From NCBI GenBank assembly GCA_030998015.1, contig JARWMV010000068.1, positions 19,931 through 83,930 of the forward strand: a DNA stretch of 64,000 bases, given 5' to 3'. A model generated the notes under the pieces. That model made no database searches. It was given only the letters and a program-made list of their open reading frames with translations, and was not told the DNA's origin. The translations under genes were made by a program, and so were the position numbers. Origin of the DNA: Ceratorhiza oryzae-sativae. Its lineage: Eukaryota > Basidiomycota > Agaricomycetes > Cantharellales > Ceratobasidiaceae. This document shows positions 32,699-64,000 of the stretch, in pieces. Position 1 is the stretch's first letter. Every line of letters starts with the position of its first letter.

Positions 32699-32879
32699 AT
32701 TAATGCTGTTGACCAACAACACCGGCATGCGAACCTGTTGCAACAACCCCAATGCTCCAGCTATCACTTTGGAACAAGAGTGTGGAGGAGTCAAAATCAA
32801 GATCAACAACTCCACCATGACAGGTAAGCTCATGTATGAGGATAAAAATGAGGTATCTAACCTTGTATTAGGACTCACC

Positions 32880-33463
32880 TGTTGACGACGACAAGTCAGG
32901 CAACAAGGAAAAGAGTAAGAAAGGAAAAGAACTTGTATTCGACGAGAGGTCAAGTTCTTGAGGAGCCCTCTGCAAACTTGACCTGGTTTATATACATAGT
33001 ACAAGCCACATCATAACAAACAAGTCTGTACAGTGAGTCATGACTGATAAGAGATAGAAGCAGTAGAAGCAACTGCGGAACTGCAGAATTTCACATCAGA
33101 GTTGAAATACATCTCGGTTGTCAGTCCGGACCACCCCCTGAATCACATGACACAGATATACCATAAAAGGCAAGTATGTTTGAAGCTGGTCTCATAAAAT
33201 GTAGTAAATCGAGAAAATATTATAGAGTGGATATATAGAGATGTCGTGCCGGAATTCCGGCACGTTCCGTCTCCCTTGTAGCTCCGTCAGTTCTGCTCCG
33301 TTTGGGACCCACTGCAGATCAATCGATAGCGGCGACGTAAGGCTATCCAACGATACGCAGCGAGCCCCAAGCAGAGCAGAACTGACGGAGCTACAGGGGA
33401 GACGGAACATGCCGGAATTCCAGCACAACATCTCTATGGATATATGTGTGTCAGTTTGTGACA
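32880..33463 (-). repeat. G2 3' LTR (with MITE inside)
   Basis: TGTTGACGACGAC...GTTTGTGACA. The 201 bp MITE and its 8 bp duplication occupy 33236-33444. Confidence 0.9.
33236..33436. mobile_element. 201 bp hAT MITE
   Basis: Terminal inverted repeats of about 60 bp start TAGAGATGTCGTGCCGGAA. The 8 bp duplication tggatata is at 33228-33235 and 33437-33444, and the other G2 LTR shows the empty site. TAGAG ends plus an 8 bp TSD place it in the hAT superfamily. Confidence 0.9.
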
Positions 33464-36400: not shown

Positions 36401-36981
36401 GAATCTAAAGAGTCCAACTGGAGCTCCTTGGGTTTGTTTGCTTGCACATGTAGGGGTTTTGTAATGCAGTGTTTCAAGCAGATTGGTGAGTTGAACTTCA
36501 TATCTTTCCCCTCCCAATCAATGTCTGGGTTATGGAATTTGAGCCACGACATGCCCAGAACTAGATCATTTTTGCTGACATTCACAATGTAGGCACTGAG
36601 GATCTCTCGGTGCTCTTGAATACACAACTCAAAGGTGCAGTAATGGGTCACAGACCCAGAGTCTATCTCCCTTCCATCGATTACCCTCAGTTTCTTGGGT
36701 GTTTTTAGGACGATGGTGGGAATATGGTATTGTTTAACCAAATCTTCATGTATAAATACTGACGTGGCCCCTGAGTCAATCATGGCCCATCCATTAAATT
36801 TTTTCATGTTATATGCAGATTTGCGTTCAGGGGTTATGCACAGGGGAAATGCATGAAAGAAAAACTGTAGCTGTGATTGGTTTCCTAACAACATACATTC
36901 CATTTCCATATTTTTATTTTCATTATGCGCATTTTGTAACATAGCGCCCAAGACCACCCCCCTGGCACAGTTTGAGCTCAT
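33451..36981 (-). pseudogene. G2 pol: protease, RT, RNase H, integrase, chromodomain (one stop)
   Basis: The first frame (36109-36981) starts with an ATG that overlaps the gag stop (ATGA). It holds the protease (MIDSGATSVFIHEDL) and the RT N-terminus to LHMCIDYR. A single TGA at 36106-36108 follows, where relatives have a sense codon. The second frame (33451-36099, 882 codons) is otherwise complete: RT with YMDDILVFS, RNase H (AERNYNIYNKEMLAIIK), integrase zinc site (SCIRNKHSNQ), core (TVVDHLTKM / SDHGPNF / QSKQANQV, the last showing K where the catalytic E usually stands), and a chromodomain (YYVKWLGYDERQWLTYDD). With one nonsense codon and the doubtful Glu it is close to, but not, functional. 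The frame ends inside the LTR edge. Confidence 0.9.
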
Positions 36982-38366
36982 TCTTTTACCAACTCTTTGT
37001 TGGTTGTTTCTACATCCTCAACCACTGCCTTGTATCCTGACATCTTAGCTGAGGGGCATTTGGCTGCAATATGACCCCGTCCTCCACAGTTATAGCAGGT
37101 GTTTGTCCCCTTTCCTTTTCCTGCGCTATCCAGATCCATTGTGTCTGGATCCCTTGCCTTGGGGGCTGCTGGTGGATGATTATCCTTCTTTATGTCCTTG
37201 AAGGATTCTTGTACATTGGCATTGCTGCCATCGTAGCAGACAGTTGGAACTGTGAAGCCCTTCGCATTGGGCCCAATGGCCACAATCTGACCTTTTACAG
37301 CTCTCCCATCCTTAATCTTATATATCCATTCCCCATTTTTGAATTTCTCCTTTTGGGGAGTGCTTTGGGGGTTATTGGTCAGCCTACTGGATGAGGCATT
37401 GCTGCTGGGTTTGTTACTCCCATGAGATGTTTGTTTGCTACCGAACAAGATGAGGTGGCGGTCAATTTCTAGGGCTTGCTGAGTGAGTTGGGCAAAGGTT
37501 TTGGTGCAGGGGTCATAGTTTTGGGCCACCATGCTATCTGTTACATCTGATGATAGACCATTGTAGAACTGATCATGCATGGCGGCATCGTTGTAGTTGA
37601 GACCTGTGGAATATAGGTTGAATAGGGTGAGGTAATCCTGAACTGTCTTGGATTGTTTCAGTTTCCGCCACTTGTCGTGGTTATTTTCAGTGCAGTTCAG
37701 ATCCCCATAACAGGTAGTAAATTCTTGCCAGAACAGACTGGCATTGTGAAGCCAGGGGATCGCAGTTCCAGGGTTTAAAATTTCAAATTCTTCATATGAG
37801 TTGACCCATTCGGCTGCTGATCCTTCAAGATAGGATGTGATAAATGCGACCACTTGGTCAGCTGAGTGCCCACTCATATTGGTATTGATGTATTGGGTGC
37901 ATGTGATCCTGAATGAGATGGCTTCTTCACACTTTGTGCCATTGAACTTTTGGGGAGCTGCCATCTTGACTTTTATGGCTGATCCGCCAGTGGTAACAGT
38001 AGCTGTTGGCTGTGGTTGGGTCGCACCAGTGATTGGTTGTGCTTGGGTGGCACCTGAGCCACCTGATGAGGTGTTTATTTGTGCTTCAACACGTGTGATC
38101 GTCGTTTGAAGTATTGCTAACATGCCCACAAGGTTATTGACACTGGTGGCCAGTCCAGCCACATTGGCATCTATTTTTGTCTGGTTGGTGGTGAGCCTTG
38201 CTTCGAGCGTATCTGTGTATGTCTTGTTGTTATGTTCTACGTCTCCAATGTCATTTTGGAGGTTGTTGGTTCGTTCTTGTAGTTCATCCATTGACTGGAG
38301 CATATAGATGACTTTTTCCCCATCAGACATATTTGCCCAAGCAGGGGTAGAGGGTTGTGACGCCAT
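36978..38366 (-). CDS. G2 gag (intact)
   Basis: The start is placed at 38366 (MASQPSTP) because G4 has the same MASQ start at 47035; the frame is open 11 codons further up without need. 462 aa. Residues about 30-100 are coiled-coil-like (LQERTNNLQNDIGDVEHNNK). A Gly/Thr/Gln linker follows, then the capsid-like core (MAAPQKFNGTK... and WVNSYEEFEILNPG), and a CCHC knuckle CYNCGGRGHIAAKC near the end. It stops at TGA 36978 overlapping the pol ATG, a layout suited to reinitiation. Its product would assemble the virus-like particle in the cytoplasm. Confidence 0.9.
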   Translation of the reverse strand: MASQPSTPAWANMSDGEKVIYMLQSMDELQERTNNLQNDIGDVEHNNKTYTDTLEARLTTNQTKIDANVAGLATSVNNLVGMLAILQTTITRVEAQINTSSGGSGATQAQPITGATQPQPTATVTTGGSAIKVKMAAPQKFNGTKCEEAISFRITCTQYINTNMSGHSADQVVAFITSYLEGSAAEWVNSYEEFEILNPGTAIPWLHNASLFWQEFTTCYGDLNCTENNHDKWRKLKQSKTVQDYLTLFNLYSTGLNYNDAAMHDQFYNGLSSDVTDSMVAQNYDPCTKTFAQLTQQALEIDRHLILFGSKQTSHGSNKPSSNASSSRLTNNPQSTPQKEKFKNGEWIYKIKDGRAVKGQIVAIGPNAKGFTVPTVCYDGSNANVQESFKDIKKDNHPPAAPKARDPDTMDLDSAGKGKGTNTCYNCGGRGHIAAKCPSAKMSGYKAVVEDVETTNKELVKE

Positions 38367-38576
38367 TTCAGAGAAGACTTGGTAAAATTCTAAAGACAAC
38401 GGAGACGATAAGGAAGTACAGGGAATTGGGAGTTGTTTTGATAATATAGGATTTCAGTTCCCTGCACAAGTCTATAAACCTCAAAGTTTCTGATTCTTGC
38501 AAACCTTAACCAAGTATTGTCCAAGTCCCAACTTTTGGTGTCTTGGCAACAATATGGGCACTCCACCCTCTTTAGT

Positions 38577-39053
38577 TTAGTTTGGTCCCGAAGGAGCGCT
38601 TCCTTGGGGAGGATTGATTTGGGCTGCTGGAAGGGGTGTTTCTTCCTGAATTGGCAAGCCTGTGCCACTTAGAAAGGTGGGGTGAGGGAGGTCTGACGGC
38701 GTTGAGAAGACGGGGAAGGCGTACTTGTGGGGTTCAACTGTTTCCCAGACTATAGCTTCTAGTTGGAGATGGTCTTGGAGGAGGGATAGGTAGTCCTCCT
38801 GGTGTTTGCGCAAACGTTCAGTTAAGTGCACGCAACGGGCCTCGGCTTCGCAAAGTTTTTCACAGGTTTCTTTGTACTTATTCCGGTAATGATGGTACCT
38901 GTCTTGGAAATTTTCGATAGTGTTTAACAGGTGACAAAGAAGCTGTTGACCAAGGTTCTCCAGCTTATAGCTGGTTGTGGGGGATGGTGTAATAGTAAAG
39001 GAATTTGTCCTTCTTAGGACAATAAGGGCAGCGCGCTGGGAAGGTGGCTCCAT
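38577..39053 (-). CDS. G2 leader ORF, coiled-coil protein (ORF0b)
   Basis: 158 aa, ATG at 39053 (MEPPSQRAAL). The same start and sequence exist in G4 (MEPPSQHTAP, about 48018). Residues about 35-100 are charged and heptad-like (NFQDRYHHYRNKYKETCEKL...), so probably coiled coil. The C-terminal part is Pro-rich (FSTPSDLPHPTF). It lies between the 5' LTR and gag, where gypsy elements normally have no gene. Function unknown; presence in two elements argues that it is real. Confidence 0.65.
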   Translation of the reverse strand: MEPPSQRAALIVLRRTNSFTITPSPTTSYKLENLGQQLLCHLLNTIENFQDRYHHYRNKYKETCEKLCEAEARCVHLTERLRKHQEDYLSLLQDHLQLEAIVWETVEPHKYAFPVFSTPSDLPHPTFLSGTGLPIQEETPLPAAQINPPQGSAPSGPN

Positions 39054-39300
39054 TTGCCTGATGGCAAATTTTGCACTCAGGGGCACCTGGCTTGGTGACA
39101 AAGGCTTGTTGGGTGCGTCCGACTTTTTGGGGGTGGACTTTGATAATTAATACTCAGTTGAAATCGATGTGCCCAGCTTCTTCAAGGATACTTTCGACTG
39201 AGTTGAGGGTGAAGCAGTGGATTGACAGGTGTCCGAACCACCCACACAGACAGCAGCGCTGGTCTTCTGTAAAAGGTTGTGCCACTTGAGGGCTGTGCAT
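38965..39300 (-). pseudogene. G2 leader ORF, zinc-knuckle protein (ORF0a, one stop)
   Basis: It starts at ATG 39300 (MHSPQVAQPF). There are three cysteine groups: CCLCGWFGHLSIHC, CKIC and CPYC, like a double zinc-binding module. A TGA at 39154-39156 interrupts it where G4 has a His codon (INFNHVKIIKV). Its end overlaps the start of ORF0b in another frame. Confidence 0.55.
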
Positions 39301-39649
39301 TCCGTCAGAGACATACTCAAGCAAAAGCAGGATGAAAGAAAAATAGACCCTTCCCAAGTCTATTGGAATAGGGAGGTGACCTCCATTGCTCAGCTACTTA
39401 AGGGCAATGAGTGACCCCACCTCTTGTCAACGAAAGAGATTAGAGAACCAAAGCTTGTTACAACGTGTGAGGGACCTGGCTATGCAAGGTTTCACAGAGG
39501 CGCATATAGGGCAATGATATCTCATGGCTGTGGATAGGTGGAGTAGGATTGGGGAAGGCAACAGGGAGTTATCTCAAGACAACACCAACGGCGTTCCAGA
39601 AGTATCCCAGATGACACTGAGACTTACAATTGTCAAGAACTTGACCTGA

Positions 39650-41470
39650 TGTTGATGACGACAAGTCAGGCAACAAGGAAAAGAGTAAGAAAGGAAAAGA
39701 ACTTGTATTCGATGAGAGGTCAAGTTCTTGAGGAGCCCTCTGCGAACTTGACCTGGTTTATATACATAGTACAAGCCACATCATAACAAACAAGTCCGTA
39801 CAGTGAGTCATGACTGATAAGAGATTAGAGAAGCTGTGCCAGAATTTTGCAGGACTCCGGCACCTGCAGCAGGACTCCTGCGCTTTTTGGCCATTCTGGC
39901 ACTGGCACTGGCACTGGCTCGCCAGTTGCCGGAGTCCGTGCCAGAATTCTGGCAGGTGCAGGAGCATGCCAGAATCCCGGGACTCCTGCAACTGGCTATG
40001 GTCAGAACTCACCACATCAAGTTGTGTAATAGCTCATTAGATGCGCAGAAGAGAGAGCATTCCAATGATATAGAGCACGTTTCATACAAAATTCATTCTG
40101 GCAAATTTTACACAGTTCTTTTGTTCGGGTCTTTGTGGCCAACATTTCCAGGGCCATAAACCTCACCACAATCTCTCGCAAAGTAGCTCATTAAATGCGC
40201 AAAAATCAGGAGATCACAGATATGTCATTTGCTCCGCGCAAAAATTCGATAACGCATAGTTCGCTCCAAATTGATGCTCAGGAAATATTCTGGGAAATGC
40301 GCACATGCTTTTCACCACAAAGAAAGCTGTTTGAAGCTTATCCGACCAGCTAGCCTTTCTCCTGAGCTTGAAAAACCACTACTGACATTATATCTAGTAA
40401 ATACATTGACTGGATAACTATGAACCGGGGTGTGTGCAGGCAACCTCACTGTCAACCCAGCAGAATCACTGCACATGGTCGGAAATTTATGTTATAAGCT
40501 TGTTCCAGATGTTTCAGGTACCTGAGATAGGGCAATAAGCATCCCTGAATCTGTCTGTGATACTAAGAAAGCCAGAATAGCACTGTGTGGGTGTCCATGG
40601 CGCATTTCAGGGGGTTTTCAGCATCAGGGGCGCTGTTCCCCCAGTTTCACCAGCTAAAACACCTTCAATCAGGCTGGTTTTTGGTATATAGAGTCCTTAT
40701 GATAATGCGCATCGACTCCGCGCAAGGGAGCGAGGTTTGCACGGCTGGTTTCACTAGCGCTTGTGGCGCTGTTCAGGGGTTTCCCCCTTTATATCCCTGA
40801 TAACTTTCGATAAAAGCGTTCGTTTATTATGAAAATATGTGCATTCGATTCCTCTCAGTGAGACGAGTCAATTGGTATGTATATCGCCCCAATTAGAGCT
40901 CAGGATAGCGAGCTTGAACATCTGCGCATCCCCTGAATATTTTTCTTAGACGATTCTGCGCCGATACTGCTCATTTCTTAACCGTTTGTAATCAAGTAAA
41001 GTACAATTTGATCCGCTGAATTTTGCGCATTTTATGAGTGCTTAATATATGCAATCCGTGGTGGTCATGTACAGGTGACAATGTGCCAGTATTCAGGTAT
41101 GCATGTATGCAGGTATGCCAGTACTGCAGGACTCCGCCTAGGACTCCAGCACCCTTGAGGCTATTCTGGCACCTGCACTGGCAACTGGCACACCGGAATT
41201 TGCTGGAATTTTAGCCAGAATTCTGGCAAGTTCTGGCTGCAGGAGCCTGGCACAGCACCTCTATAAGAGATAGAAGCAGTAGAAGCGACTGCGGAACTGC
41301 AGAATTTCACATCAGAGTTGAAATACATCTTGGTTGTCAGTCCGGACCACCCCCTGAATCACATGACACAGATATACCATAAAAGGCAAGTATGTTTGAA
41401 GCTGGTCTCATAAAATGTAGTAAATCAAGAAAATATTATAGAGTGGATATATGCATGTCAGTTTGTGACA
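39650..41470 (-). repeat. G2 5' LTR (with hAT inside)
   Basis: TGTTGATGACGAC...GTTTGTGACA, split by the 1.44 kb hAT at 39826-41263. Confidence 0.9.
39826..41263 (-). mobile_element. Non-autonomous hAT element, copy 2 (1.44 kb)
   Basis: Inverted, nearly identical copy of 470-1903. Perfect 8 bp duplication taagagat at 39818-39825 and 41264-41271; the uninterrupted site is seen in the other G2 LTR at about 33047. It is among the most recent insertions of the nest. Confidence 0.93.
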
Positions 41471-41475
41471 TCACC

Positions 41476-43269
41476 AATACCACAGGTGATAGCTCAGGCA
41501 GCAAGTTCGACACTGACGATGCATACAGCATTACTTCCAATGTACTGTCCCTTACTGACACTCCCACCATATCCTTGACCAGTGAGAGCCCAACCTCCAA
41601 AGCCATTGAACTACCTGCATACAATGAGCTCAATGGATTGGAGGAAGTGTTCTTCAAGCTCACCCTTGATGATCCTGTTCCACCAAAAACAGAACTGTCC
41701 ATGGCAACTCCTGATGCCCCTGAAACACATTGGTCCTTCCCCACTCAACATATACTGTCCGAAGACAACCCGACTGTTGAGCAAGCATTATCCGGACCGA
41801 ATGCAACCGAATGGAAGTCAGCCATGGAAGTGGAAGTGGCCACCCTTGAGAAAATGGGAAGTTACAAACTTGTCGACCTCCCAGCCAATCGAAAAGCCAT
41901 TGGAAACAAATGGGTACTAACCATTAAATGCAACAAAAATGGTAAGCCTGTTTGTTATAAGGCTCAATTAGTTGCGCAGGGATTTAGTCAGCAACCAGGA
42001 ATCAACTTTGGAGATACTTACACACCGGTTGTACAACTTGATTCTATTTGTATCATCACATCCTTGGTGAATCAATTCAATTGGGACTTGAGGCAGCTTG
42101 ATGTAAGTTCTGCTTACCTACATGCGAACATAAATGAAGAACTTTATATGCATCAGATACCATACTTCAAGGACAAAACAAATAAGGTACTTTGTCTTAA
42201 ACATTCAATTTATGGACTGAAACAAGCAGGTTGAATGTGGAATCAGTTATTCAATAATAAACTCAAGCGGCTTGGATATGTACCTTGCAAAACCGACGTG
42301 TGTGTTTATTGACATATAATCAACATTGAAGATGAACTCTTCATTGCAATACTTGCAATTCACATTGACAACATTATGGTTGCAAGTTCGAGCAACCATA
42401 CTGACTTTGTTATCAAAGAACTAATGGAAGCCTTTGAAATGCGCAACCTAGGTTCCATCCAACACTTCTTAGGTATAAGCTTTACTTGTGATCGTGAGCA
42501 AGGCACTTTAACTTTGAGTCAAAAAGCATATATTGACTCTATAGTTGAATCTGCAGGTTTGCAGAATGCCTACACCACTCACATGCCCATGACACTGAAT
42601 ATTCAACTCACTTGATTTGAAGGTACAAAATCCAATTTTAATTATGGAATGTACATTGGTAAGCTACTATATGTGGCCCTTTGCACAAGGCCCAACATAG
42701 CTTATGTCATTACATTCCTAGCCCAATTCACAATGTGCTTTGGATTGGCACATGTGACAGCTGTGAAGCACATGATCTGTTACCTAAAGGGCACTGCTTC
42801 ACATGGGATAATGTACCATTGATCCAATGAAGGATTTGGAGAGTTAGGATATTCAGATGCTGACTGGGGGAGTAACTTACTTGACTGTAAGTCCATCTCT
42901 GGTAATATATTTTTACTCAGAGGTGCAGCTATTTCTTGGTCTGCTAAGAAGCAAGCCACCATTGCTTTATCAATGATGGAAGCTGAGTATATGGCACTTT
43001 CACATGCATGTACTCAGGCACTATGGCTGTGCCAGTTTCTTGAAGAGTTATACTATGAAGCTGACACACCAACCCTAATACTTTCAGATAATCTTGCTGC
43101 ACTTACGCTTTCAGTTGAGTTGCAATGTCATGGATGCTTGAAACACATCAACATTTGCCATCACTTCATGTGTGATGTTATTGAGCAGCGCAAGGTATCT
43201 ACTTTGTATGTACTGTCCAAAGAGAACCTTGCCAATGCACTAACTAAAGCATTGCCGGCTCCCCTTTAG
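41476..43269 (+). pseudogene. Copia C1 reverse transcriptase and RNase H (broken)
   Basis: 41476-42234 reads the RT N-part (NATEWKSAMEVEVATLEKMG, then GNKWVLTIKCNKNGKPVCYK). 42376-42615 contains the catalytic region, where the YVDD box reads HIDN, so the active site is lost. 42973-43269 is RNase H (MMEAEYMALSHACTQALWL) and the tail STLYVLSKENLANALTKALP. Stops at 42232, 42309, 42616 and 42822 among others. Confidence 0.85.
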
Positions 43270-43475
43270 TTATTTCTAAGCCAATTATGGGGGAGCTGTA
43301 CACAATGATTACTGAAGTTGAAGAGGATGAGTAATCAACCTGTATAATCAATATAATAGTTGAATTGAAATAATGGAATCATTCTGAATGTTTGAAAGTC
43401 TGATACAGTCTTTGGAATTGGCTATATTCATGTAATAAATTTCTAATCATTCCTGTAGTTTACACTTACTTGATT

Positions 43476-43721
43476 AAGGGGGAGTGTAGAATATTCATGT
43501 ACATACTCAAATGATCTAGAATGCGTATGAGTCAGTAATCAAGTCAAGTGTGAATGCATCATGTATGCGCAGTATATGCGCAGCAGCAGAGCATATGACT
43601 CATGTGAATACATTGGGTATAAATAAGGACTCTATGAGCCCCCCATACTCCATCTCTTCACTTACATTCACACATTCTTTTGTAAACCGTTTTTATATAA
43701 TATATACATTTGATTTCTATA
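43476..43721 (+). repeat. C1 polypurine tract and 3' LTR
   Basis: The tract aagggggag (43476-43484) is followed by the 237 bp LTR (43485-43721), and then by the aattt duplication. Confidence 0.9.
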
Positions 43722-44700
43722 AATTTCAGTCCCGGTTTTGTTGCAGAACTTGCATAAGTGGCAGTTGATGAGCTCTTTGCTGTTATCAAAATGTATGCAC
43801 TTGATTTTGCAGCCTTTCTGAGTGCAAATGAAATTTGCCAGTGCAATGTAGCAATCAACAGCTTCACTTTTATTGCACATGAAGTTGACAAACATAAATC
43901 AGGTGGCTGCATTGATGAATACTATGTAGTAGTGATTGCCTTGGATTGAGTTTATCAATGCCAGGCCCCAGACATCTGAGTAAATGAGATTGGCAATCTT
44001 GCAAGGGGTTTTGATGGCAACAGTACCAAAGGACACGTGTGAGATTTGCCTTGTACACACCCTAGGCAATCAAAATTTGGGTCAAGCAGGACTGATTTGG
44101 GATTAGCAATTTTGAGACTGCAAGCAAGGTTGCTGTTCTTGAAGCAAATAATTTTTTGCAGGTCTTTATGTGCAAGTATTATGTGCCAATCATGTAGAGG
44201 GTGCACAATGTATGTGTGTTGATGCAGGTCTGTAGTAGCCATGAGGTACCAGGAGTTTCTGGTTTGGTGTTCACCAATCTTCTTGGCTAGCATGAAGAGC
44301 CATTGATTGTTGGGGCTGATTTTGTCAAAGAAAGCAATTGTGTCACAGGTCATGTGAGCAGAGCAACAAGGATATTCATCAGTCCAAGAGGATAGGGATA
44401 AAAGGTTGACTGGCAAGTTTTCAACAAGGACAACATTTGTAAAGTATATGCAGCTGTCAGGTGATCTGTACTGAGGCTTGTTGTTAATGACCCCAGGCAC
44501 ATGCGCATATGTGTGCAAAGTGATTTTGCCAAAACCCAAGATGGTGGCTGTGTTGCCAATGCCCTGGATTGTCAATGACATTGGAATAAAATTGGTTAAA
44601 TGCTCATGCCAGCTGGTAACATGGCAGGATGCACTGGAGTCAATGATCCAGGTGTTGTCTAGACCAATGCCAAATTGGGTGTTGTTCTGCAAAGAGAAGG
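43722..44700 (-). pseudogene. Copia C2 protease and integrase N-part (broken)
   Basis: 43955-44692 reads a copia protease (WIIDSSASCHVTSWHEHL, with DSS in place of DSG) followed by the pre-integrase zinc site (HDWHIILAHKDLQKI and FDCLGCVQGKSHTC). 43658-43912 shows the integrase start. It is cut at 43722 by C1 and resumes at 29681. Confidence 0.8.
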
Positions 44701-44838
44701 AGAAATGTTTGAAGCTTTTGGCAAAATATCACTGAATGCATGTTGGTAGATCTTCAAATGCAGGTGGATTTGGAGTAGTAAGGAGCTCTCAGGTAATCAG
44801 TGTGCAAGAAGATTGTTAGTTTGAGCTGGGTGTATGCA

Positions 44839-46365
44839 TCAAAGTAGTGTGTGTGAAATGGAAAGCATAGGCAAAGTCTGAAGATGATATAAAATTTGCA
44901 TGCTTGTCATTTTGCTGTTGTCTTGGCTGTTGCAATGCTGGCTGTTATCACTGTTGTTGCCATTGATATGCATGTTGTCACAGCAATTGTTGTGTCTGCT
45001 GGTATTAGCACACCCAGTACTGCAGCCTTGGCCAGATCCTTGGTGGCTGTTTGCAGTATGACCACCTCTATGTCCTCCTCCCCTGGGTTTATGGCAGTCA
45101 GCCTTCTTGTGACCAGGGATGCCACAATTATGGCATATAATCTTGATTACAGCAGGAACATGGCAATTTGGGGTGCCTTGGCAATTCCCAGGGACTTGGT
45201 GATTATATGCAAAGAAGGATTTTTTGCTGGCAACTGACTTTTGGCAATGATATTCAGCAAGTAGGTGGGATTGAATGTTGATAGATAGCTTGGAACCATC
45301 AGTATCACCAGATTCAGGGCATTGAGGGATGACAGAGACAAGTACCTGCCAGGATTCAGGCAGCAAGACTAAGAGTTGCCAAACAAATTTGATTTCTTTG
45401 AGTTGATCTGATGATTTGGGAAGGAGCGCAATGTTGAGATTGTTAAATATCTTGTGTAACTCCTTTATATGCACCTCTAAGTTCTCCCCTTTGTTCATGC
45501 ATAGCAAAGTAAAGTGGTTTCAGAGCATAGTCATTGCAGCGACACCTAGGGACTGGTATTGGTTCCTAAGTATGGCCCAAGCATTGGCAACAAAGGTTTT
45601 GCAGGCAATGTGGATCATAGGGCTGGTGTCAATGCAGCAACATAAAGCACCTAGTGTGGTAGTGTTCTTTTTTGTCCCAAGCAGGTTGGTTGTTTGGATT
45701 GCTAGGTTGAGGGGTAGAGCTGCTGACAATGTCCATACATTGACCTCTTGAAACATATCTTGCATTTGTATGCACCAGACTTGATAGTTGTCCTGGCCTT
45801 GGAGCTTGGCAATCATGTAGTTCTTGTTGGCAATGACTAGCATGGGAGTGTTGGGCATGCCTTTGGATGATGATGCCATAGTAGCAGGCTGAGCAGTAGC
45901 AGCAGCAGCAGTGACAGTAGATAAAGGAGCAGGCACAATAGGTAGTGCAGGGGCAATGGGCTCGATGGGTGACAGTAAGCTGATCTGGGCAAACAACAAT
46001 AGGTATAGGCAGTCATCAAGAGTTAGACATTTGACGCCTGTGTGTGTATGTGCCCCTAGTAGTGCTTTGTATAGGCTGAGTTGATTGCTAGTGAATTGGT
46101 ATTCTGTGGTGCCAAGTTGTAACAAGTAAAGCTGATCATGGAGATCACATTTGACAGTATTGAGGGTGGATGTGTTTGAGGGCAATGGTGGTAGTGCAAC
46201 GTTGAAGGGTGCTGGATTGAGTGTGAAGTTGGCAAATTTGTCTGTAACACCTGTAGCATTGAGGAAATCTTGTACTTGGCAATCCAATGAAGTTGGCAAC
46301 AAGTGAGGCAATAGACATGGTGATTGAGCAGGTGTAGATAACTGAGGATTCAACAGGGTGGGCAA
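44839..46365 (-). pseudogene. Copia C2 gag (broken)
   Basis: 45520-46365 begins near the LTR and contains the gag N-terminal pattern (ANKNYMIAKLQGQDNYQVWC). 44839-45507 reads the core (VWQLLVLLPESWQVLV) and a CCHC knuckle CHNCGIPGHKKADC, then a His/Asn/Gly-rich stretch. A frame change near 45515 separates the two. Confidence 0.8.
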
Positions 46366-46384
46366 CTGGTGAGCTCAATAACAA

Positions 46385-55510: not shown

Positions 55511-56840
55511 TTACTTGATACGCCTAGCCCAAAATGCACCATGAAACATCGACCTGGTGTAGTAATAGTCTTTATGCTTCTCATAATCTTTTCTCACCTC
55601 CTCGAATATTTTTGTGACTGACCGGACATTTTTTGGCTCGACTGGGGTAGCAGAGCCCACAATCTGGTTAGCTAACATAGCACCAACCGCCAACCCTCCC
55701 TGCAAAGCAGTTAATATACCCTGCGATGACAATGGGTCGAATGCCATCGCTGCATCTCCGACCGCGCACCAGCAAGCTTCCTGGCTACCAGCAGGCGCAA
55801 GGAATGATGTTCTGGCGCTGGTACATCGTGGAAAATTTGCTTTTGTACCAGACATTGGGCGGTAATCGCTGCTGAGAATCGTCTGCGAGATATAGGTTGT
55901 GTCTCGATGGAGCATATCCAAAAAAAAATCTTTGTTTCGGGCAGATTTTGCCACCTCATCGCAGTCGTCGGTATGAAACGCAACGAGACGCCTGTGATCC
56001 GGTAGTCGGGAGCTGTACCACCAGCCAGTTTCTGACGCCTCAATGAGAGTCCGGCTGTCTCGGTCAAGATTGGTTGTCGCGAAAACCATATAAAACGCGA
56101 GCAAGTTGTCACTTTTAATTGTTTTTGCTCCGAGCTGGCGCAGATCTGAGTTTTTTCATACTAGTCCGCAAGTGGGGGACGGCATACCTTTCGAGCGACG
56201 GACGCTTGTCTCCCCGAAGCGTCGACCAACCATTTCGCACGATACTGTTGCATTCCCATCCCTTCTAAATTCATGGTAACCGTCCAGGCCCCATTATCAT
56301 CCTTCCGTGCGGAGATAAAATCACCCTTGACTAGTGAACAGTCCTTGACTGCTCGATTCGCACAGAGCAAACGGACATGCTCCCTCAAGGATTCGTCAAA
56401 TGCAGGGCGGTCGAGATGCCATCCGGCGCCTTGTGGGTTCATAATTGAGAATGTTTCTTGTAAATCAGGAGACTGCCAAACAGATGCATTTCCTGCGCAA
56501 CGTGTATGCAGTCCTTGGACAGTGTCTTGTAAAAGTTTTTCGGCCACGCATGGAGATAGCTGGTATAGAACCTGGTTGGCGCGCGGTGGTAACGATTCTC
56601 CGATCTTCCGAAGAGATATAAGATCGAATCAAACCATCACCAGGATATCCATACCTTGAAATGAGTGGGATCGGAATTGTCCACAAGCAGAAATGAGGCT
56701 TGGGGTGCGTTTTGTACAAATGATAATGCAGTGGCACAGCCGGCCGGACCCCCGCCGACGATGATCACTTATCGCACGTGGAAACATGTGCTCGCATAGA
56801 AGTATGTAGAACTCATAAGCTTACCATCGAGTAAATCCAT
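55511..56840 (-). CDS. LodB/GoxB-like FAD enzyme (halogenase-like class)
   Basis: Exons 56825-56840, 56655-56767, 56188-56604, 55511-56134; introns 57, 50 and 53 bp, all GT-AG; 389 aa. Start ATG 56840 (MDLLD). Motifs: FAD-binding VGGGPAG (9-15), GESLPP (45-50), GWHLDR (104-109), VDASGR (170-175), GWWYSSRLP (219-227), GDAAMAFDPLSSQG (308-321). These belong to the tryptophan-halogenase-like flavoproteins. I do not see the WxWxIP box of true halogenases; the GWWY...LP form is typical of the LodB/GoxB branch, which matures the cysteine-tryptophylquinone cofactor of LodA-type oxidases. A lodA-like gene lies 6 kb away, which supports that role. It could instead be a monooxygenase. Intact, no odd codons seen. 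Confidence 0.82.
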
Positions 56841-57204
56841 GACCAAGTAGATAGGGTTTGAGGGACGTAAGAACGTGCTGCTTTTATGGGATTGCCCTCG
56901 TCTCTACGAGCCATTGAGTCCTAGCTCGCTCCAGCAATCTCAAAATCGCATCGCCCCAAAACGAGCGCTGATCTCCGAGATTTCGCAGAAAGGCACAGAA
57001 CCAGATCTTTGGGAGAGTTGCGAGCAGCTCCCGTTTGAGGTTCGACCCGCCGGTTGAATGTTTGTCGGTTGGACCCGAGGCGAATGGACGAAGCAGGGCT
57101 TTATCATGACTTCTATATTCAGTGTTACGGCCGAAACTTTAATTGACTCGTCCTTACGCTGCCGAACCCGCCTGTGGTCACGAATAGTTAGGAGCGCCCC
57201 ACCA
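56841..57204. other. Upstream region of the LodB-like gene
   Basis: No gene recognised. It should contain the promoter of the minus-strand flavoprotein gene. Confidence 0.4.
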
Positions 57205-57383
57205 GCCAAAAGCAGAAAATCTGGCTAGCACTCACTAGAAGCCCGGCGTCTAAGTATGCTTTCTAGCACTCACGAAGCCCTGGTAGCACCAATAGCGCGT
57301 GCTACTCGGTTCCTAGTGAGCGCTAAAAAGCATACTTAGACAGGTGGAGCTACTTCGCGCTAGCTAGGTTTTCGGGCTTTGGC
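57205..57383. mobile_element. MITE, copy 1 (about 180 bp)
   Basis: Ends gccaaaagcagaaaatctggc and the matching inverse gctaggttttcgggctttggc. The interior shares tctaagtatgct/agcatacttaga arms. A second copy is at 58887-59061. Duplication not clear. Confidence 0.55.
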
Positions 57384-57854
57384 CGAGCAAGCGTTGCTGA
57401 GTGATACTATTATCAAGATTCATCACGAGGGTGTGATTTTGAGCACTCGTGCGGCTATCTTGATACCAAGTATCGCCAACGAGCATATGGTGTGCTAGTG
57501 AGCATATGCCGATTTGGCAGTGTAGCTGCAAATCAATCAGACCCCCGATAATGCATCGATTTAGTTCTGGTTGAGCGCGGGTTTAGTATTATCCTCTTAC
57601 CAAAATACATTGGGGCTCTTCACTCCGAATACCGGGGGGTATCTCCATCAGTTCTGGGCGCCCCATGGCATTCCCAATCGGCTCTGGGCGCCAGTGCTCC
57701 TATTGTCTTCGGTTCTTCTGAATGCTCTGACTGTTGCCTGAACCCCCCCCCCCCCCGGACATATAAAGCAATTTTAAGCCCGAGAGGTGTTTGCTGACGT
57801 TCAAGTGCTTAACGTTATATCAATATGTGTGGCCAAACGTTGTGACTCCTGTGG
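57384..57854. other. No recognisable gene
   Basis: Short frames only; a run of 14 C at about 57742-57755. Confidence 0.4.
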
Positions 57855-58800
57855 TGTTGAAGCGAAGTAAGTAGTTACAGTAGGTGACAAAAGTCTTGCA
57901 GCACTTGTGTTATGGCTCTGGGCAGTCAGGAGCGAAGGCAAAGCACAACCTTTTGTATGACATATGTAGGGTACTGTCTAATACATATATTGCAACACTT
58001 TGTGAGCATCTGGAGTGCATGCACAGTGCATGAGGGGAGATGTGGCACAGGGGTGGTTTTTAAGGTCATTGTTCCAGGCGTCCCCGAGCTTAGCTGTAGT
58101 AGTAGGCATGATAGCGCTGAGCTTTGAGATTTCAACAAGTATCTGAGCTTTTGTGTGCGTGCCCCCGTTATTGAGCAATGGTGGCCCAAAGTCAGCAATT
58201 TTGGCACTTTTTGGCCAAAAACACCCAAAAACAGTACTTTCAGTTGCCCATATCTCTACAATGGTGGCAGGCACACAAAAGCCCAGATGCCCGTTGCAGT
58301 CACAAGGCTCAGCACTATAATACCTACTACTACAGCTAAGCTCAGGGACACCTGGAACAATGACCTTAAAAAACCACCTGTGCCACATCTCCCCTCGTGC
58401 CCCGTGTATGCACTCCAGATGCTCACAAAGTATTGCAATATATGTATTAGACGGTACCCTAAATATGCCATACAAAAAGCCGTGCTTTGCCTTCGCTCCT
58501 GACTGCCCAGAGCTGTAACACGAGTGCTGCAAGACTTTTGTCACCCAGTGTACACTTCAGATGGACCCAGCACAGCGGGTTGAGCTTGTTGTATTCGAGC
58601 GGAGAAACTTTTCGCTGAGGTTGAGCCGACTTGGGCATTCGATTATATAGAATACGACGGATAAAATAAGGCGGTACATCGGCGTGTATGCAGGCAAAGA
58701 AAAGTACAAACGGAGAAGAGGCATATAACATCGGAGATAGGACAAAGGAACGGGGTAAAATATCGATATAACTTTGATATATGCGCGGGATCGTTCAACA
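57855..58800 (-). repeat. Solo LTR of the C2 copia family, split by a foldback element
   Basis: Starts tgttgaagcg and ends tcgttcaaca like the C2 LTRs, and matches them along 58600-58800 but with far more CpG. Flanks (tgtgg / aggtg) do not match, so the duplication has decayed or the copy was rearranged. The insertion occupies 57878-58550. Confidence 0.75.
57878..58550. mobile_element. Foldback element with about 290 bp inverted arms
   Basis: The left arm (ggtgacaaaagtcttgcagcac...) and the right arm are inverted copies over most of their length, meeting near 58200. Frames in it are mirror images of each other. Ends are approximate and no ORF of transposase size exists. Confidence 0.7.
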
Positions 58801-58886
58801 AGGTGAGCATACAAGTATAAAGTGAGTCTTTGATGCGGCGCAGAATCTAAATGATTCGAGCGCTGAAATTACAGCGCTTATCTCAG

Positions 58887-59061
58887 CCAAAAGCCGAAAA
58901 GCTAGCTGGCGGGAAGTAGCTCCGTATATCTACGTATGCATTATAGCACTCGTTAGACCGTGGAGGCTCCGATAGTCTATGCTACTAGGTCGAGGGAGCG
59001 CTAGAGGGCATACTTAGACGCTGAGCAGCTAGAGCATGCTAGTCAGATTTTCGGCCTTTGT
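58887..59061. mobile_element. MITE, copy 2 (about 175 bp)
   Basis: Ends gccaaaagccgaaaagctagc and the inverse gctagtcagattttcggccttt; same family as 57205-57383. Confidence 0.5.
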
Positions 59062-59936
59062 TGAGTTTGCAAAAATTACCTGCTGGCTCTGATTTCGACC
59101 GCTCAAGACAGCAGCAGAATCACATGGGCTGGCCAAGGTTAAACCGCATGTTGCTCCATTTAGAGTTGTTTCAGCGGCGAGACCTGCGCATTGGTGGTCT
59201 CGGTTCTACCGCGCATAGTTTGACATACATGGCTTGAGACAACATGAATGGCCACAACATCACGGTCACAAATAAAAAATTGTTCCTCGGCAGCGTCAAA
59301 TTCAAGAAGGGTGGTGAGATCCAAGAGAAATTCTCTACCAGAAAATATATATATACAACCGAGCGGTTGCTGCTGAGAAGATTTTATACCTTTGAGTCTG
59401 GGCAGGTGCCTTCAGTCGCGTTTAGGGACCAGATTATCTCAACCGAATCATGGTTTCGAGCCCCTCAGACTAAGAATATACATCCAAATATCAGCAAGGA
59501 GCGTTCTCGCAAAGTCTTGGCTGATAGAAACCAGATTTACGCTGTGAGACAGCGATTTCGTGTGTAGGACCGTCGTGTTTTGACCGTCGTGTTTTCGCAA
59601 GCCATAAATGCCAAACAACTCGCAGTAGAACAGAGACCACGAATATGCGCAGGTCTCATCATGAAAACAAGTCTACATGTAGCTACATGCATTTCCCCCT
59701 TGGCCAGTCCATTCGACCCTACTTCCGCTTTCACGCTTGAAATGCGATCAAGCGAGTACTTTTTGCAAAGCGCTGTAAGTATCTCGAAAATAGTCAACGT
59801 GAGCAGCACGAGCTTTTGACAACCGCAGTAAGCAAATTTTTGTGCGTCCAACTTGCATGAGCACTGTTGATAGAGCGTTCAATTTCATTGGTTCATTACA
59901 TGAAATCCCTTCCTAGATAAGCATATAAGACCTATT
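59062..59936. other. No recognisable gene
   Basis: One plus-strand frame of 107 codons (59244-59567) is basic and unrecognised. I do not call it a gene. Confidence 0.35.
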
Positions 59937-61314
59937 CTAAACTTGCAGTAGAGACAGGTCAAACAGAGATTCTGCCCTCTTTGACGCGGTAGCAAGTTTT
60001 TTGTTCTCCGGGTAACTGGCTGCTGCCTTCATGAGCGCATCCTTAAGCTCGCTGTGAGCCGACGAAACAGACTTGAAGGGGTAATAGTTGAAAGGGGGTG
60101 CGGCGTACTTCTCCGTTCCCTCAATTTTCTGAGTGACCAGGGATTCGGCACAATACTTCAGAATAACTCTCATGAGGGGCATGATGTTGCCTACGAGACT
60201 TGGTCGTTGTTCGGCTTTCGCGGTCCAACATTTTTCGATTGACAGCAAAAGATAGCAGTACTGTAATGAATGATATCAGCCAACCACCCATCTTAGCCAA
60301 TGATAACCATACCGCTGCATCAGCTGCCTCCATAAGCTAACTAAAATGTGAGCAAAGGCGTACGCACATATCATTTGCTTAATCACCGTTTTTATGTTTC
60401 CGTCAAAATTTGATGTTACAGGATCTTCGACAGTGGGAATGCAGGAGATATTTTTCCCTTCAAGCCCCTTGAATATCTCGAAATGAGAGGGCGTGGTCAG
60501 ACGACCTGTGCCGGTACTTCCTTCACCCTGTTCAACAATGAGCTTTAGGGCCGACAATGCTTCGTCCAGGTTCGTAATAGAATGTAATCCGTCGTCGCGA
60601 TATATATGATCTGACGGGACGAATTGTTGACCTAGTGTATTTGGATCGAAGAGATTGGGCTTTTTGGCATTAAGGGTCGTTAGTCCTATTATTCAACGCC
60701 TGAGAATTGCTCGAACGCCCCAGATATTAATACACGCACCGACCTCAAGGCTTTCATAAAATTCGCCGATGCTACTGTAGCCAGGCATAATGTTTCCCCT
60801 AGGTAGATTGACGGCTTGGAAGGGCTCTTCAACCTAACCGACCGCAATTAATGTCATAAACCATCATATCCTGATTATACTTACTCTAACAAACATTTCA
60901 ATGGTATCTTCATGAGGCGGCGCGAGATGCAGCTCCAGAGGATCGTAGAATATTTCACAGGGATACTCCGGCGTATGGTCTTTACCCCAGAGAACTGGTT
61001 CAAATTTGCATGCGCGCATTAGGTTTCCCGCCAAGCAAAGGTGGAGCATTTCTTGGACTACAACACCTGGGATGGGGTTAGCACTGAAATGAAGGCATTC
61101 GATTCCCAAGCCCACCTAGTATCTTCTCAGATGCATCATTCTGATCATTATCAACGTCCACAGAATACATCGAGTACAGATACATTGGAATAGTATGAAG
61201 CTCCAGGAGCACCGCAGTTTCACAGTGCTTCTGCAACTCATCCATCGTCCATTCGGCGGGCCGACCACGAGGAGCTGGGTATGCAGGTTTCGGAAGGGAT
61301 GAAGTGTTAGGCAT
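59937..61314 (-). CDS. Ferritin-like iminophenylpyruvate-dimer-synthase-type protein (VioB/RebD domain family)
   Basis: Exons 61116-61314, 60885-61066, 60740-60833, 60387-60685, 60313-60336, 59937-60260; introns 49, 51, 54, 50 and 52 bp, GT-AG; 373 aa with all phases consistent. Start ATG 61314 (MPNTSSLPKP). Motifs: DELQKHCETAVLLELHTIP with E38 and H40, YLYSMYS, then QEMLHLCLAGNL (E72, H75), EEPF, SSIGEFYESLE, IVEQGEG (208-214), SHFEIF (225-230) and DAAYCYLLLSIEKCW. This is the ferritin-like domain found in VioB and RebD, which couple two imine forms of indolepyruvate; E/H residues would bind the metal. Here the domain stands alone, without the long N-terminal half of VioB. Together with the LodA- and LodB-like genes it suggests use of an oxidised amino acid. 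Substrate unknown. Confidence 0.82.
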
Positions 61315-62767
61315 TGTGATATACGACAACTCGTGAGGTGGATGCCAGCTATCGTATCTCAAGCCATCTCTGTTATAACCCGAGCAACAGGAATCCACAG
61401 CCAGGCATCACGAATAATGGACATGTCCCTATTGGCTCTCCTAATCGGGGCCTCAACTTTACGGGCAGGTGTGATTTAACGATGCGGGCTTTCGGGCCCT
61501 GCTAGATCTTCAATCGAACACTTGATTCTGTTCATCCCGTGCCCAGCGGGCGCGGCCAAGGATCGATAGGATTGTCTTGATCCGCGTGCTGACCGTCAAG
61601 TGACTCGGCGCCGCCAAATTCGGCGATCCCCCGATCTTAACGATACGCATGACTCTCATTGGTGACCGCTGAGATTTCTCGTGAACTTCTGCAGAATTCC
61701 ACAATGACAGGGCGCATGTAGGGGTGATGGGTAATCTAATAACCAGAGCTGTTAGGGGCTATCTAATGTCAATGAGATAAGGAGCTGGCGTGATATGTCC
61801 TGATTGAACGGCGATTATATTCCCAGCCACATTTGATGCTCCTTTGAGTCTTCTAATCTTTTCAGCATGCGCAGTACGGAATAAACCTTAGTGAACGATA
61901 TTGGGCTACCCCCTTTTTCTAGGGAAAACACTGAACTATTTTATTGGTTACCAATCAATTCATCAACCACTGTCCAATTGCAACCCGAGGATTTTTGGTC
62001 GTTAGCATTTCTTTCTTCTTCACGGCTGCCGGTCTCGATTTATGAAGCATACGAGAATGGAGGTATTTGGGTGTCTCAGGGGAGCATAGTAGGCAGCTAG
62101 GGAGAGCAAGGCAGATGCTGAATCAAGTGACTACGTGAGCCATTTCAACGAATGCTTACATGATCCAACGAGCCGCTATGGCAGAAGGGAGCAAGCTATA
62201 CGCGTTGTAGACCAATAATATCGCAGATATTTGCTCTACCGTTAGACCAACTCAGAACCCTATGTTCGGTGTCGTGTCTCAGCCGACTCCACATATAAAG
62301 TTCAGCAATTCAGATTAAGCTAGATGTGCTGATGACATAGAGTTTAGGGACGAAATACCGGAAGATCTACCCGCGTTCGCCGCTTAGAGTAAATCCGTTT
62401 TGGGGTTCGTTCTATCGCTTGACAGCGAAGGAACGAGCTTGGACAGTCCTCAACCTGAATCTTATCCATCCTTTGCGTATCCCCAAAGCCAAGCCAAAAA
62501 GGACAAAGGAGCCAGAAATCTTACGCACTCGCATGTCGACTGAGCTACCTAGACATGAAGCGGCGGCTTGGGTATCGGCACCTGCCGAGTATTCTGCATG
62601 AAGCCGTGCGAGCAAATATCCTGAGATTACCACGTCCCTGGTCTCACTTAGGCACCGTTTAAGCCCTCCTGCTCAACAGTAGCTCCGATGGCCAGTCTCG
62701 TTGAAGTATATAATCTGACCGAGAAGAGCCGCTGGACACACCGCTCAACGAGCTGTCTTGTATCCCC
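61315..62767. promoter_or_regulatory. Divergent promoter region, ferritin-like gene / LodA-like gene
   Basis: 1.45 kb between the starts of two divergent genes. No further gene is recognised. Minus frames at 61510-61704 and 62412-62633 lack motifs. Two tRNA-box-A-like strings (about 62235 and 62540) have no box B. Confidence 0.4.
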
Positions 62768-64000
62768 ATGTCTTTCGCACCAGATCAGATCGCATATGTA
62801 GACATCTATCCACCTATCAACGTTGCTCGGGTCGGAGGAAAGTGATGACACTGTGTTTAGCCATGTTGCCAGCTGATTAGTGTCTACAGACTCGGACAAA
62901 TACTTCATCGGTACTGAAATTCCCGGTGTTGAGCCTACTCCTCCTGGTGGGTTCAAGGATGAGGACCATAAGATAAAGAAACAGGTGATTTTCCATGGTA
63001 TCTAATTCACACAGGCGCTGAATGAGAGTGACCTCGACGTAGGCCGCGCGTTTCCGAGTTTATGCGTTCGGCAAGGACTCGAAGCCGCTTGGAGAAGTCA
63101 CCAGCAAAGACTACTCGCTGACCTGGACATGTCATGTAGCTAGCAAAAAGGCGGCCTGGGTTATTTTCCGTGGCAAGTACAGGAAAGAGACGTGGCAACT
63201 TCGCAATAAAACCGTTCAGGGTTGGGTGGGTTGAAATACGTTTTCTACTTGATAGTGATCTGACGTACATGCGCTAAAAAGCCGGAAGGGACGCCGCCCA
63301 ACTATGAGTACACGAACACCCGCACCAAGCTAATCATTGACTCCGGAGAGCAAAAGATCGAAGGCGAAAGCGCTCAGCCTGTAATCCTTCAGGGGAAATT
63401 CCAGGGAAGTCTGGACAAGGAGATTCCAGTACAGCTGGGCGAGCTCCGTACAGATGACCATGGTCGCTTGCTAGTTCTGGCCAGCGACGGGGACTCGTTC
63501 TCTGTCTTCCCTCCGGCTCATCAAGATCTTCACTCTGGCTTCGATAACGATGGTTGGGTTGGTTCACCTCTCGAGCTTTAAAATGCGTCTGTAACGGCTG
63601 ACAGACCATCTTAGGTTGATAAAATGTGTGATGGGAGCGTTCGTGTCACAGTCAAGTCCAAGTCACAGCCTGAGTCTGTGACCTATAGCTTCTACCCCAC
63701 CCTGCTATACTGAGTCCCGTGTGCCCGTAGTTTGAATATCACTGTCAAGAATAGAGCAACAATCATCACGGCACCTCCGAGATTCGCTTCCGGAACACAT
63801 ATTCCAACAACATTATATGAACTAATCGAGGACATATATGAGCAATCGCGCCGCGGCAAGGATTACGATGTTGGGGAAGTCGTCTATTATCGCGACATCT
63901 ATCCACTGTTCAAGAGGATTTATCTACTATCATGGACAAATCAGTATGCTTTTAATGGTCACGGTACACGCCTTACCACTCCGAGTCGTCCCTCGCTCAC
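62768..64000 (+). CDS. LodA-like quinoprotein amino-acid oxidase (5' part, runs off the window)
   Basis: Exons 62768-62841, 62890-62984, 63043-63225, 63282-63557, 63615-63673, 63731 to beyond 64000; introns 48, 58, 56, 57 and 57 bp, GT-AG. Start MSFAPDQIAYVDIYPP. Motifs of the LodA family in order: IYPPINVARVG, DKYFIGTEIPG, PPGGFKD, AARFRVYAFG, SLTWTCHVASKKAAW, PPNYEYTN, KLIIDSG, LGELRTDDHGRLLVLA, DNDGW, ITAPPRFASGTH, RDIYPLFKR, GHG. LodA-type enzymes oxidise amino acids (lysine side chain, or glycine for GoxA) with a cysteine-tryptophylquinone cofactor made from their own residues with help from LodB. The cofactor Cys and Trp lie past the window. One problem: exon 1 joined to exon 2 is one base out of frame, so the gene is damaged, or the first junction is not the one I chose. 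Confidence 0.78.

What the first reader, a model, noticed from the sequence alone, without database searches (positions are those of the whole stretch)
55511..64000. Candidate fungal LodA/LodB plus VioB-type ferritin gene group
A LodB-like flavoprotein, a stand-alone iminophenylpyruvate-dimer-synthase-type ferritin domain and a LodA-like quinoprotein oxidase lie within 8.5 kb. Known families: LodB/GoxB mature the CTQ cofactor of LodA/GoxA; VioB/RebD act on the imine made by an amino-acid oxidase (VioA/RebO). Inference: the LodA-like enzyme could replace the flavin oxidase and feed an imine or aldehyde to the ferritin-like enzyme. I know of no described pathway with this combination.
Basis: partly seen in the sequence, partly recalled or inferred. 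Interest (0 to 1): 0.87.

Follow-up and report, generated by a model that had tools for sequence, protein, structure and literature searches.

The report
Fungal quinone oxidase with metal partner
A fungal genome, likely a basidiomycete's, carries side by side genes for a LodA-type oxidase predicted to use a quinone made from its own residues, the flavoprotein that likely matures it, and a ferritin-like protein predicted to hold two metal ions and likely to act on what the oxidase releases; this grouping was already reported in other fungi in 2015, but its job appears untested.

Summary
The three genes are real: LodB-like (55511-56840, -), PF12902 ferritin-like (59937-61314, -) and LodA-like (62768 to the window end, +). 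The window stops at its contig's end inside LodA; the rest, with both predicted CTQ residues, was read on overlapping contig C233. One defect: LodA exon 1 cannot be joined in frame to exon 2 by a single GT/GC-AG intron in either copy scanned. The arrangement is not new: Campillo-Brocal 2015 (PMC4417212) reports an opposite-facing lodB and a nearby PF12902 gene for its five fungal lodA genes, without a function. The 'VioB-type' label fails: the VioB model scores 19.5 bits against a cut-off of 1250. I add evidence that a CTQ oxidase and a di-metal protein form one unit: a Mycena LodA-ferritin fusion; adjacency in streptomycetes above chance; divergent streptomycete fusions of a CTQ-core motif to a ferritin-like domain; and bacterial LodA proteins fused to another di-metal fold (HDO). 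Best reading: LodB matures LodA, and the ferritin-like protein acts on LodA's product (imine/aldehyde, perhaps with its peroxide). That last step is inference; peroxide disposal and help in CTQ maturation remain open.

The parts
56825..56840 (-). LodB-like flavoprotein, exon 1
   Evidence: GT-AG gene model
56655..56767 (-). LodB-like, exon 2 (Rossmann GGGPAG)
56188..56604 (-). LodB-like, exon 3
55511..56134 (-). LodB-like, exon 4
   Evidence: whole protein GoxB 208.9 / LodB 188.6 bits, both under cut-off 400
61116..61314 (-). ferritin-like protein (PF12902), exon 1; likely metal ligand E38
   Evidence: PF12902 137.4 bits
60885..61066 (-). ferritin-like, exon 2; likely ligands E and H of QEMLH
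   Evidence: E72/H75 (P0001 numbering) invariant in the fungal alignment
60740..60833 (-). ferritin-like, exon 3; likely ligand first E of VEEP
   Evidence: E129 invariant
60387..60685 (-). ferritin-like, exon 4; likely ligands second E of EQGEG and H of PSHF
   Evidence: H226 invariant, E213 nearly so
60313..60336 (-). ferritin-like, exon 5
59937..60260 (-). ferritin-like, exon 6
62768..62841 (+). LodA-like oxidase, exon 1; no in-frame canonical join to exon 2 found
62890..62984 (+). LodA-like, exon 2
   Evidence: first whole codon at 62892
63043..63220 (+). LodA-like, exon 3
63289..63557 (+). LodA-like, exon 4
   Evidence: LodA_N match
63615..63673 (+). LodA-like, exon 5
63731..64000 (+). 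LodA-like, exon 6, cut by the contig end; exons 7-9 with the predicted CTQ Cys and Trp are on C233 (L014, minus strand, 5550-6323)
57207..59060 (.). nested inverted repeats between lodB and the ferritin gene, probably mobile-element insertions that widened the gap
   Evidence: origin inferred

Best explanation
This is a fungal copy of a conserved three-gene unit: a LodA-type amino-acid oxidase predicted to carry a cysteine tryptophylquinone (CTQ), its likely LodB-type maturase, and a ferritin-like protein predicted to bind two metal ions and likely to act as a second enzyme on the oxidase's product. Steps. (a) LodB is predicted to complete CTQ in LodA, as known LodB/GoxB do. (b) LodA would oxidise an amino acid or amine and release an imine/aldehyde plus H2O2, as known LodA/GoxA do; the substrate is unknown. 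(c) The ferritin-like protein would take up the reactive product and oxidise or couple it at its metal site, using O2 or the peroxide made on the spot. Shown here: the genes, their families, the conserved CTQ-type residues, the conserved metal-ligand-like residues, the fold match of a close relative, and repeated adjacency and fusion of the two enzyme types. Inferred: metal content, substrate, product, hand-over, and that this particular copy is expressed.
Against: The papers I searched gave no biochemical result for any of these ferritin-like proteins. Adjacency and fusion show linked function, not its direction: peroxide removal or help in cofactor maturation would look the same. Of the 12 Streptomycetaceae pairings, 7 (G038, G157, G208, G243, G358, G399, G406) rest on partial LodA_C matches of about 35-40 positions and 21.5-29.9 bits, some under the cut-off of 25; only G015, G027, G036, G287 and G128 have full LodA matches, and G015 and G027 were known to be linked before the sample was drawn. 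Of the 24 named-fungus contigs with the ferritin gene, 13 have no LodA or LodB row of equal contig length among those listed (five of the 13 are under 13 kb and only the best 120 rows are listed). This genome also has an orphan ferritin paralogue on C247 with no LodA or LodB match there; 29 of the 59 LodA_C-positive Streptomycetaceae show no PF12902; 35 of the 77 bacterial LodA loci show neither PF12902 nor an HDO domain over 100 bits in the stretch held. LodA exon 1 does not join in frame, so this copy may not make a full-length oxidase.
Confidence: 0.45

Rival explanations
1. The ferritin-like protein protects the cell: it would destroy or use up the H2O2 that LodA makes, as a catalase- or ferroxidase-like partner.
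For: Known LodA/GoxA release H2O2 (passages). None of the three proteins shows an obvious hydrophobic signal peptide (rough hydropathy check only), so peroxide would form inside the cell. Ferritin-fold metal proteins often handle peroxide (recalled).
Confidence: 0.2
2. The ferritin-like protein helps to make the cofactor: it would carry out the first hydroxylation of the tryptophan of CTQ, before LodB acts.
For: In LodA/GoxA the first hydroxyl is thought to arise by autocatalysis, seemingly copper-dependent in LodA, and LodB/GoxB act later (passages of PMC7876137). A di-metal hydroxylase fused to the quinoprotein could do this in place.
Against: 35 of 77 bacterial LodA loci show neither PF12902 nor an HDO domain in the stretch held, and known LodA and GoxA form CTQ without such a partner (recalled), so it is not generally needed.
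Confidence: 0.15
3. One reading: the ferritin-like protein couples two imines as VioB/RebD do, with LodA in place of VioA/RebO.
For: Shares the PF12902 domain region with VioB. A flavin amine oxidase gene (PF01593) lies in the Hymenobacter cluster beside ferritin, LodA and LodB.
Against: VioB model 19.5 bits against 1250; 373 aa against a 1003-position model (VioB is 111 kDa in passages of PMC5476825). No PF01593 match near the trio. 0 of 20 bacterial PF12902 loci without LodA had a homologue of that amine oxidase nearby.
Confidence: 0.1
4. Bystander: the ferritin-like gene merely sits beside lodA/lodB in this repeat-rich region, or the LodA copy here is decaying.
For: Retrotransposon-like ORFs fill window 30-46 kb (judged by eye), inverted repeats lie between lodB and the ferritin gene, and LodA exon 1 does not join in frame.
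Against: The same trio in distant Agaricomycetes, the Mycena fusion and bacterial adjacency. A damaged copy here would not alter what the unit does elsewhere.
Confidence: 0.1

Closest known systems
Fungal lodA/lodB/ferritin-like arrangement, LodA group V (Campillo-Brocal 2015, PMC4417212; Gymnopus luxurians)
   Same: Same three families; lodB opposite to lodA; ferritin-like gene close by or between.
   Different: Another lineage (nearest named proteins Rhizoctonia/Ceratobasidium); inverted repeats lie inside the trio and LodA exon 1 does not join in frame here.
Marinomonas lodA/lodB and goxA/goxB systems
   Same: CTQ-type oxidase plus flavoprotein maturase; CTQ Cys aligned, Trp by motif.
   Different: A ferritin-like third gene; scores under the LodA, GoxA, LodB and GoxB equivalog cut-offs.
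VioB/RebD iminophenyl-pyruvate dimer synthase
   Same: Shares the PF12902 ferritin domain; the gene lies beside an amino-acid oxidase (for VioB, recalled).
   Different: 373 aa against a 1003-position model; VioB model 19.5 bits against 1250; CTQ oxidase instead of a flavin oxidase.
Caulobacter ferritin-like protein CC_0557 (3hl1)
   Different: Structural-genomics entry without a stated function.
LodA-HDO fusions of bacteria (PF17990-PF18417-PF14518)
   Same: CTQ-type oxidase joined to an O2-activating di-metal type of domain.
   Different: Different metal-binding fold; one polypeptide.

Membership tests
LodA family (CTQ amino-acid oxidase) | LodA_N and LodA_C domains | tested here: met
   151.3 and 96.1 bits for exons 2-9 on C233; 154.2 bits LodA_N for the window part alone
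LodA family (CTQ amino-acid oxidase) | Cys and Trp that form CTQ | tested here: met
   present on C233, conserved in 119 and 113 of 121 aligned rows; Cys paired with solved LodA/GoxA in printed alignments, Trp by the WWP motif only; outside the window
LodA family (CTQ amino-acid oxidase) | full-length open reading frame | tested here: inconclusive
   exons 2-9 open; exon 1 has no canonical in-frame join
LodA or GoxA proper | NCBIfam equivalog cut-off | tested here: not met
   GoxA 251.2 against 750, LodA 134.5 against 600, exons 2-9
LodB/GoxB maturase | full-length match to the maturase models | tested here: met
   GoxB 208.9 bits over 2-358 of 358, LodB 188.6 over 1-360 of 361, the two best models
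LodB or GoxB proper | NCBIfam equivalog cut-off | tested here: not met
   208.9 and 188.6 against 400
PF12902 ferritin-like | domain score over the curated cut-off | tested here: met
   137.4 against 22.3 bits
PF12902 ferritin-like | ferritin-like bundle with conserved E, ExxH, E, E..H residues | tested here: met
   model of a relative (P0001, 74% identical) and 3hl1 match; residues; metal binding itself not tested
VioB iminophenyl-pyruvate dimer synthase | VioB equivalog model and length | tested here: not met
   19.5 bits against 1250, matching 64-235 to 669-833 of 1003
VioB iminophenyl-pyruvate dimer synthase | flavin amino-acid oxidase partner nearby | tested here: not met
   the five PF01593 matches in this genome lie away from the trio
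Fungal group V arrangement of 2015 | lodB opposite to lodA, PF12902 gene close or between | tested here: met
   coordinates and strands against section 6 of PMC4417212
CTQ oxidase | CTQ present and oxidase active | not testable with these tools
   needs protein

The most novel reading that the evidence does not exclude
CTQ amino-acid oxidases and O2-activating di-metal proteins form one two-cofactor enzyme system found in fungi and bacteria. The metal partner is drawn from either of two unrelated folds (ferritin-like PF12902 or HDO PF14518) and has been joined to the quinone oxidase more than once, as a neighbour or in one polypeptide. The quinone site makes an imine or aldehyde (and peroxide) that the metal site turns over in a second oxidative step, so the 'orphan' fungal ferritin-like proteins are the second half of an undescribed oxidase cascade.
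Probability: 0.4. Interest if true: 0.8.

Novelty: new member of a known kind. Interest (0 to 1): 0.5.

Why it matters
The grouping was noted in 2015 without a function, and my searches of an open-licence library found nothing more on it. If the metal protein does work on the quinone oxidase's product, it would give a first role to proteins now named after VioB on thin grounds, and explain why two unrelated di-metal folds sit beside or inside LodA-type oxidases. It also offers single-chain versions that make the question testable with few genes.

Tried and rejected
VioB membership: rejected on score and length. VioA-like partner in this genome: PF01593 hits lie elsewhere. PF12902 as a general partner of flavin amine oxidases: 0 of 20 PF12902 loci without LodA had a homologue of the Hymenobacter enzyme (the query was one sequence, then iterated; the rows under 100 bits largely coincide with the LodB-like ORFs). 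Transfer of the whole unit from bacteria like those found: not supported. In a tree of 58 PF12902 rows (24 fungal ones chosen out of 38, 11 LodA-linked and 23 unlinked bacterial), 23 of the 24 fungal rows form their own branch (97/99), away from the LodA-linked bacterial rows; the Mycena fusion falls beside two unlinked bacterial rows with weak support (86/61) (K_L146f was dropped because the trimming profile missed it, and K_L138f is a long branch). Structure of a LodA-HDO fusion: pLDDT 71.7, pTM 0.60, too poor to say how the two sites face each other; no fold search was run on it. Three loci in this genome: set aside in favour of haplotigs and overlapping contig ends. An early guess that the Cys of EWCIGAP is the CTQ Cys was wrong: that column is Thr 47, Cys 44, Ser 22 or other. 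Fold search: Mn-catalase, AurF and other ferritin-like oxygenases do not appear among the 50 rows shown; this shows nothing either way.

Limits. The 77 bacterial LodA loci come from an alignment headed by a LodA-HDO fusion and are the best 80 of 515 confirmed stretches, so HDO counts are inflated. The FER, LODA, LODB and HDO profiles were built here. Equality of 'longest_contig' is my proxy for 'same contig', counted by eye. Only 40 of the 77 loci's genomes were searched for PF12902. Seven of the 12 Streptomycetaceae pairings rest on partial LodA_C matches. Protein searches list the best 120 of 838 and of 4255. Of the 14 control genomes only Caulobacter vibrioides has PF12902, LodA_N and LodA_C, and it has all three; whether they are neighbours there was not tested. 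Papers: PMC4417212 by passages and sections 5 and 6; PMC4699246, PMC5476825, PMC7876137 and PMC13108848 by passages only; other hits of the ten searches by listing only.
Full report
WHAT IS THERE. The window is G000:C68:19931-83930, the last 64 kb of an 83.9-kb contig of a 48.8-Mb assembly. Introns and nearest relatives (Rhizoctonia solani and Ceratobasidium proteins) put it in or near the Ceratobasidiaceae; that placement is an inference. The LodB-like gene has four exons (389 aa), the ferritin-like gene six (373 aa), both on the minus strand. LodA faces the other way and runs off the contig in exon 6. The same stretch is 99.6-100% identical, piece by piece, on C242, which ends at the same base, and at the end of C233, where LodA continues. 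C233 ends at about window position 50277, so overlapping contig ends and haplotigs explain the copies best. Five of the 54 differing alignment columns fall in the exons.

A DEFECT. LodA exon 1 encodes the family's N-terminus up to RVGG, but no single GT-AG or GC-AG intron of 35-400 nt joins it in frame to exon 2: of 23 frame-keeping models none includes the end of exon 1, in the window and in C233. The annotated relatives P0042 and P0043 read straight through this point; P0039, as annotated, starts just after it. This copy may use a rare splice site or may be damaged; only RNA can tell.

WHAT IS ALREADY KNOWN. Campillo-Brocal 2015 (PMC4417212; passages, sections 5 and 6) found lodA-like genes in four basidiomycete strains, five genes in all; in all five the lodB-like gene faces the other way and a PF12902 gene is close by or between. 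So the arrangement is published, without a function. Searches for CTQ with LodA and diiron (0 papers), VioB with RebD and ferritin (0 papers), PF12902 (2 papers, one of them this one) and at least two of LodA, ferritin-like and heme-oxygenase-like diiron (8 papers, 7 listed; of those only this one holds LodA) showed no functional study in the open-licence library.

MORE FUNGI. The ferritin search gave 37 proteins, 27 with a named fungal source on 24 contig lengths. Nine of the 24 recur among the 120 listed LodA rows (of 838), seven of these nine also among the 120 listed LodB rows (of 4255), two more of the 24 recur with LodB only, 13 with neither. Locus tags put the trio side by side or nearly so in Ceratobasidium sp. 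414 (FRC10_003128/29/30), Ceratobasidium sp. 428 (FRC12_005843/46/47) and Clathrus columnatus (Clacol_005155/56/57). Mycena maculata P0071 carries LodA_N, LodA_C and the first 143 of 221 positions of PF12902 in one chain of 870 aa.

BACTERIA. Of 77 LodA loci, five have a PF12902-type ORF within 10 kb (L050, L077, L080, L083, L086); of the genomes of 40 of these loci 21 have PF12902 anywhere. In L086 (Hymenobacter) a flavin amine oxidase, a 633-aa protein, the ferritin-like protein, an Omp85-type and a VTT-domain protein, LodA and LodB run on one strand. In 394 Streptomycetaceae genomes 59 have LodA_C; 30 of these 59 have PF12902. The two lie within 3.8 kb of each other in six (G015, G027, G036, G243, G287, G399), at 9.8 kb in one (G128), and in one reading frame in five (G038, G157, G208, G358, G406), against 0.16 pairs within 10 kb expected by chance. 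Five of these 12 (G015, G027, G036, G287, G128) have full LodA matches; the other seven rest on partial matches to the CTQ-core end of LodA_C (21.5-29.9 bits). G015 and G027 were known to be linked before the sample was drawn. The in-frame cases are a divergent kind: a short stretch GDLTRxLCAPWQYDFRxCxCxYWAASKPD, keeping the CTQ Cys and Trp positions, joined to a ferritin-like domain with its own E, ExxH, E, E..H residues in the four aligned; L145 has the reverse order. LodB-profile hits beside the four are weak (15-22 bits, and Pfam finds nothing in the L138 one); beside L141 and L145 they are clear (110 and 101 bits). Separately, 39 of 80 LodA ORFs in the 77 loci carry an HDO domain (inflated by the query), with nine Asp, Glu and His columns kept in 39 of 39 aligned rows. 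That fits the 3H/3C or 3H/4C ligand sets of HDOs described in PMC13108848 (passages), a review whose text does not hold the word LodA. 35 of the 77 loci show neither partner in the stretch held.

HOW IT PROBABLY WORKS. LodB matures LodA; LodA oxidises an amino acid or amine to an imine or aldehyde with H2O2; the di-metal protein acts on that product. The first two steps rest on family knowledge (passages of PMC7876137; PMC4699246). The third is inference from repeated pairing with two kinds of O2-activating fold. Peroxide disposal, a part in CTQ maturation and VioB-like coupling are the rivals; nothing here excludes the first two. In the PF12902 tree the fungal proteins do not nest among the LodA-linked bacterial ones, and well-supported branches force at least three changes of the 'linked' label, so the pairing seems to have arisen, or been lost, more than once.

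VERDICT. The interest lies in the wider quinone plus di-metal pairing, which can be tested directly.

Noticed in passing
L138, L139, L140, L146 (fused); L145 (reverse order); L141, L142 (separate genes): Divergent streptomycete proteins with a CTQ-core-like motif (PWQ.D.R.C.CxYWAASxPD) fused to or beside a ferritin-like domain; partial Pfam LodA_C matches of about 21-30 bits; LodB-like gene clear beside L141 and L145, weak beside the others.
   Followed up: partly
38 of the 77 loci L023-L099, e.g. L023, L031, L046, L060, L089: LodA-HDO (PF14518) fusions are frequent in this query-biased set of bacterial LodA proteins; the text of a 2026 HDO review does not hold the word LodA.
   Followed up: partly
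L086 3274-4923; L038 13583-15214; also L040-L043, L091: A close flavin amine oxidase (PF01593) homologue lies beside LodA in seven of 77 loci; the metal partner is ferritin-like in L086, an HDO domain in L038 and L040-L043 (L041 and L042 look like one contig in two assemblies), and neither was seen in L091.
   Followed up: partly
L050 6155-9478: A protein of about 1100 aa with a C-terminal ferritin-like domain, VioB-like in layout but with no NCBIfam match, beside a LodA-HDO gene.
   Followed up: partly
G000:C247:829543-830213 (L011): Orphan paralogue of the ferritin-like gene (37-61% identity over four stretches) with no LodA or LodB match on that contig.
   Followed up: partly
window 57207-59060: Nested inverted repeats (arms 57876-58060/58368-58552 and others) between lodB and the ferritin gene, probably a foldback or MITE-like insertion.
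   Followed up: partly
window 30413-46374: Dense ORFs that look like Ty1/copia and Ty3/gypsy retrotransposon proteins (recognised by eye from the translations).
   Followed up: no
P0062: A LodA-like protein with a C-terminal peptidase inhibitor I66 domain.
   Followed up: no
control genome Caulobacter vibrioides: The only one of 14 control genomes with PF12902, and also the only one with LodA_N and with LodA_C; neighbourhood not looked at.
   Followed up: no
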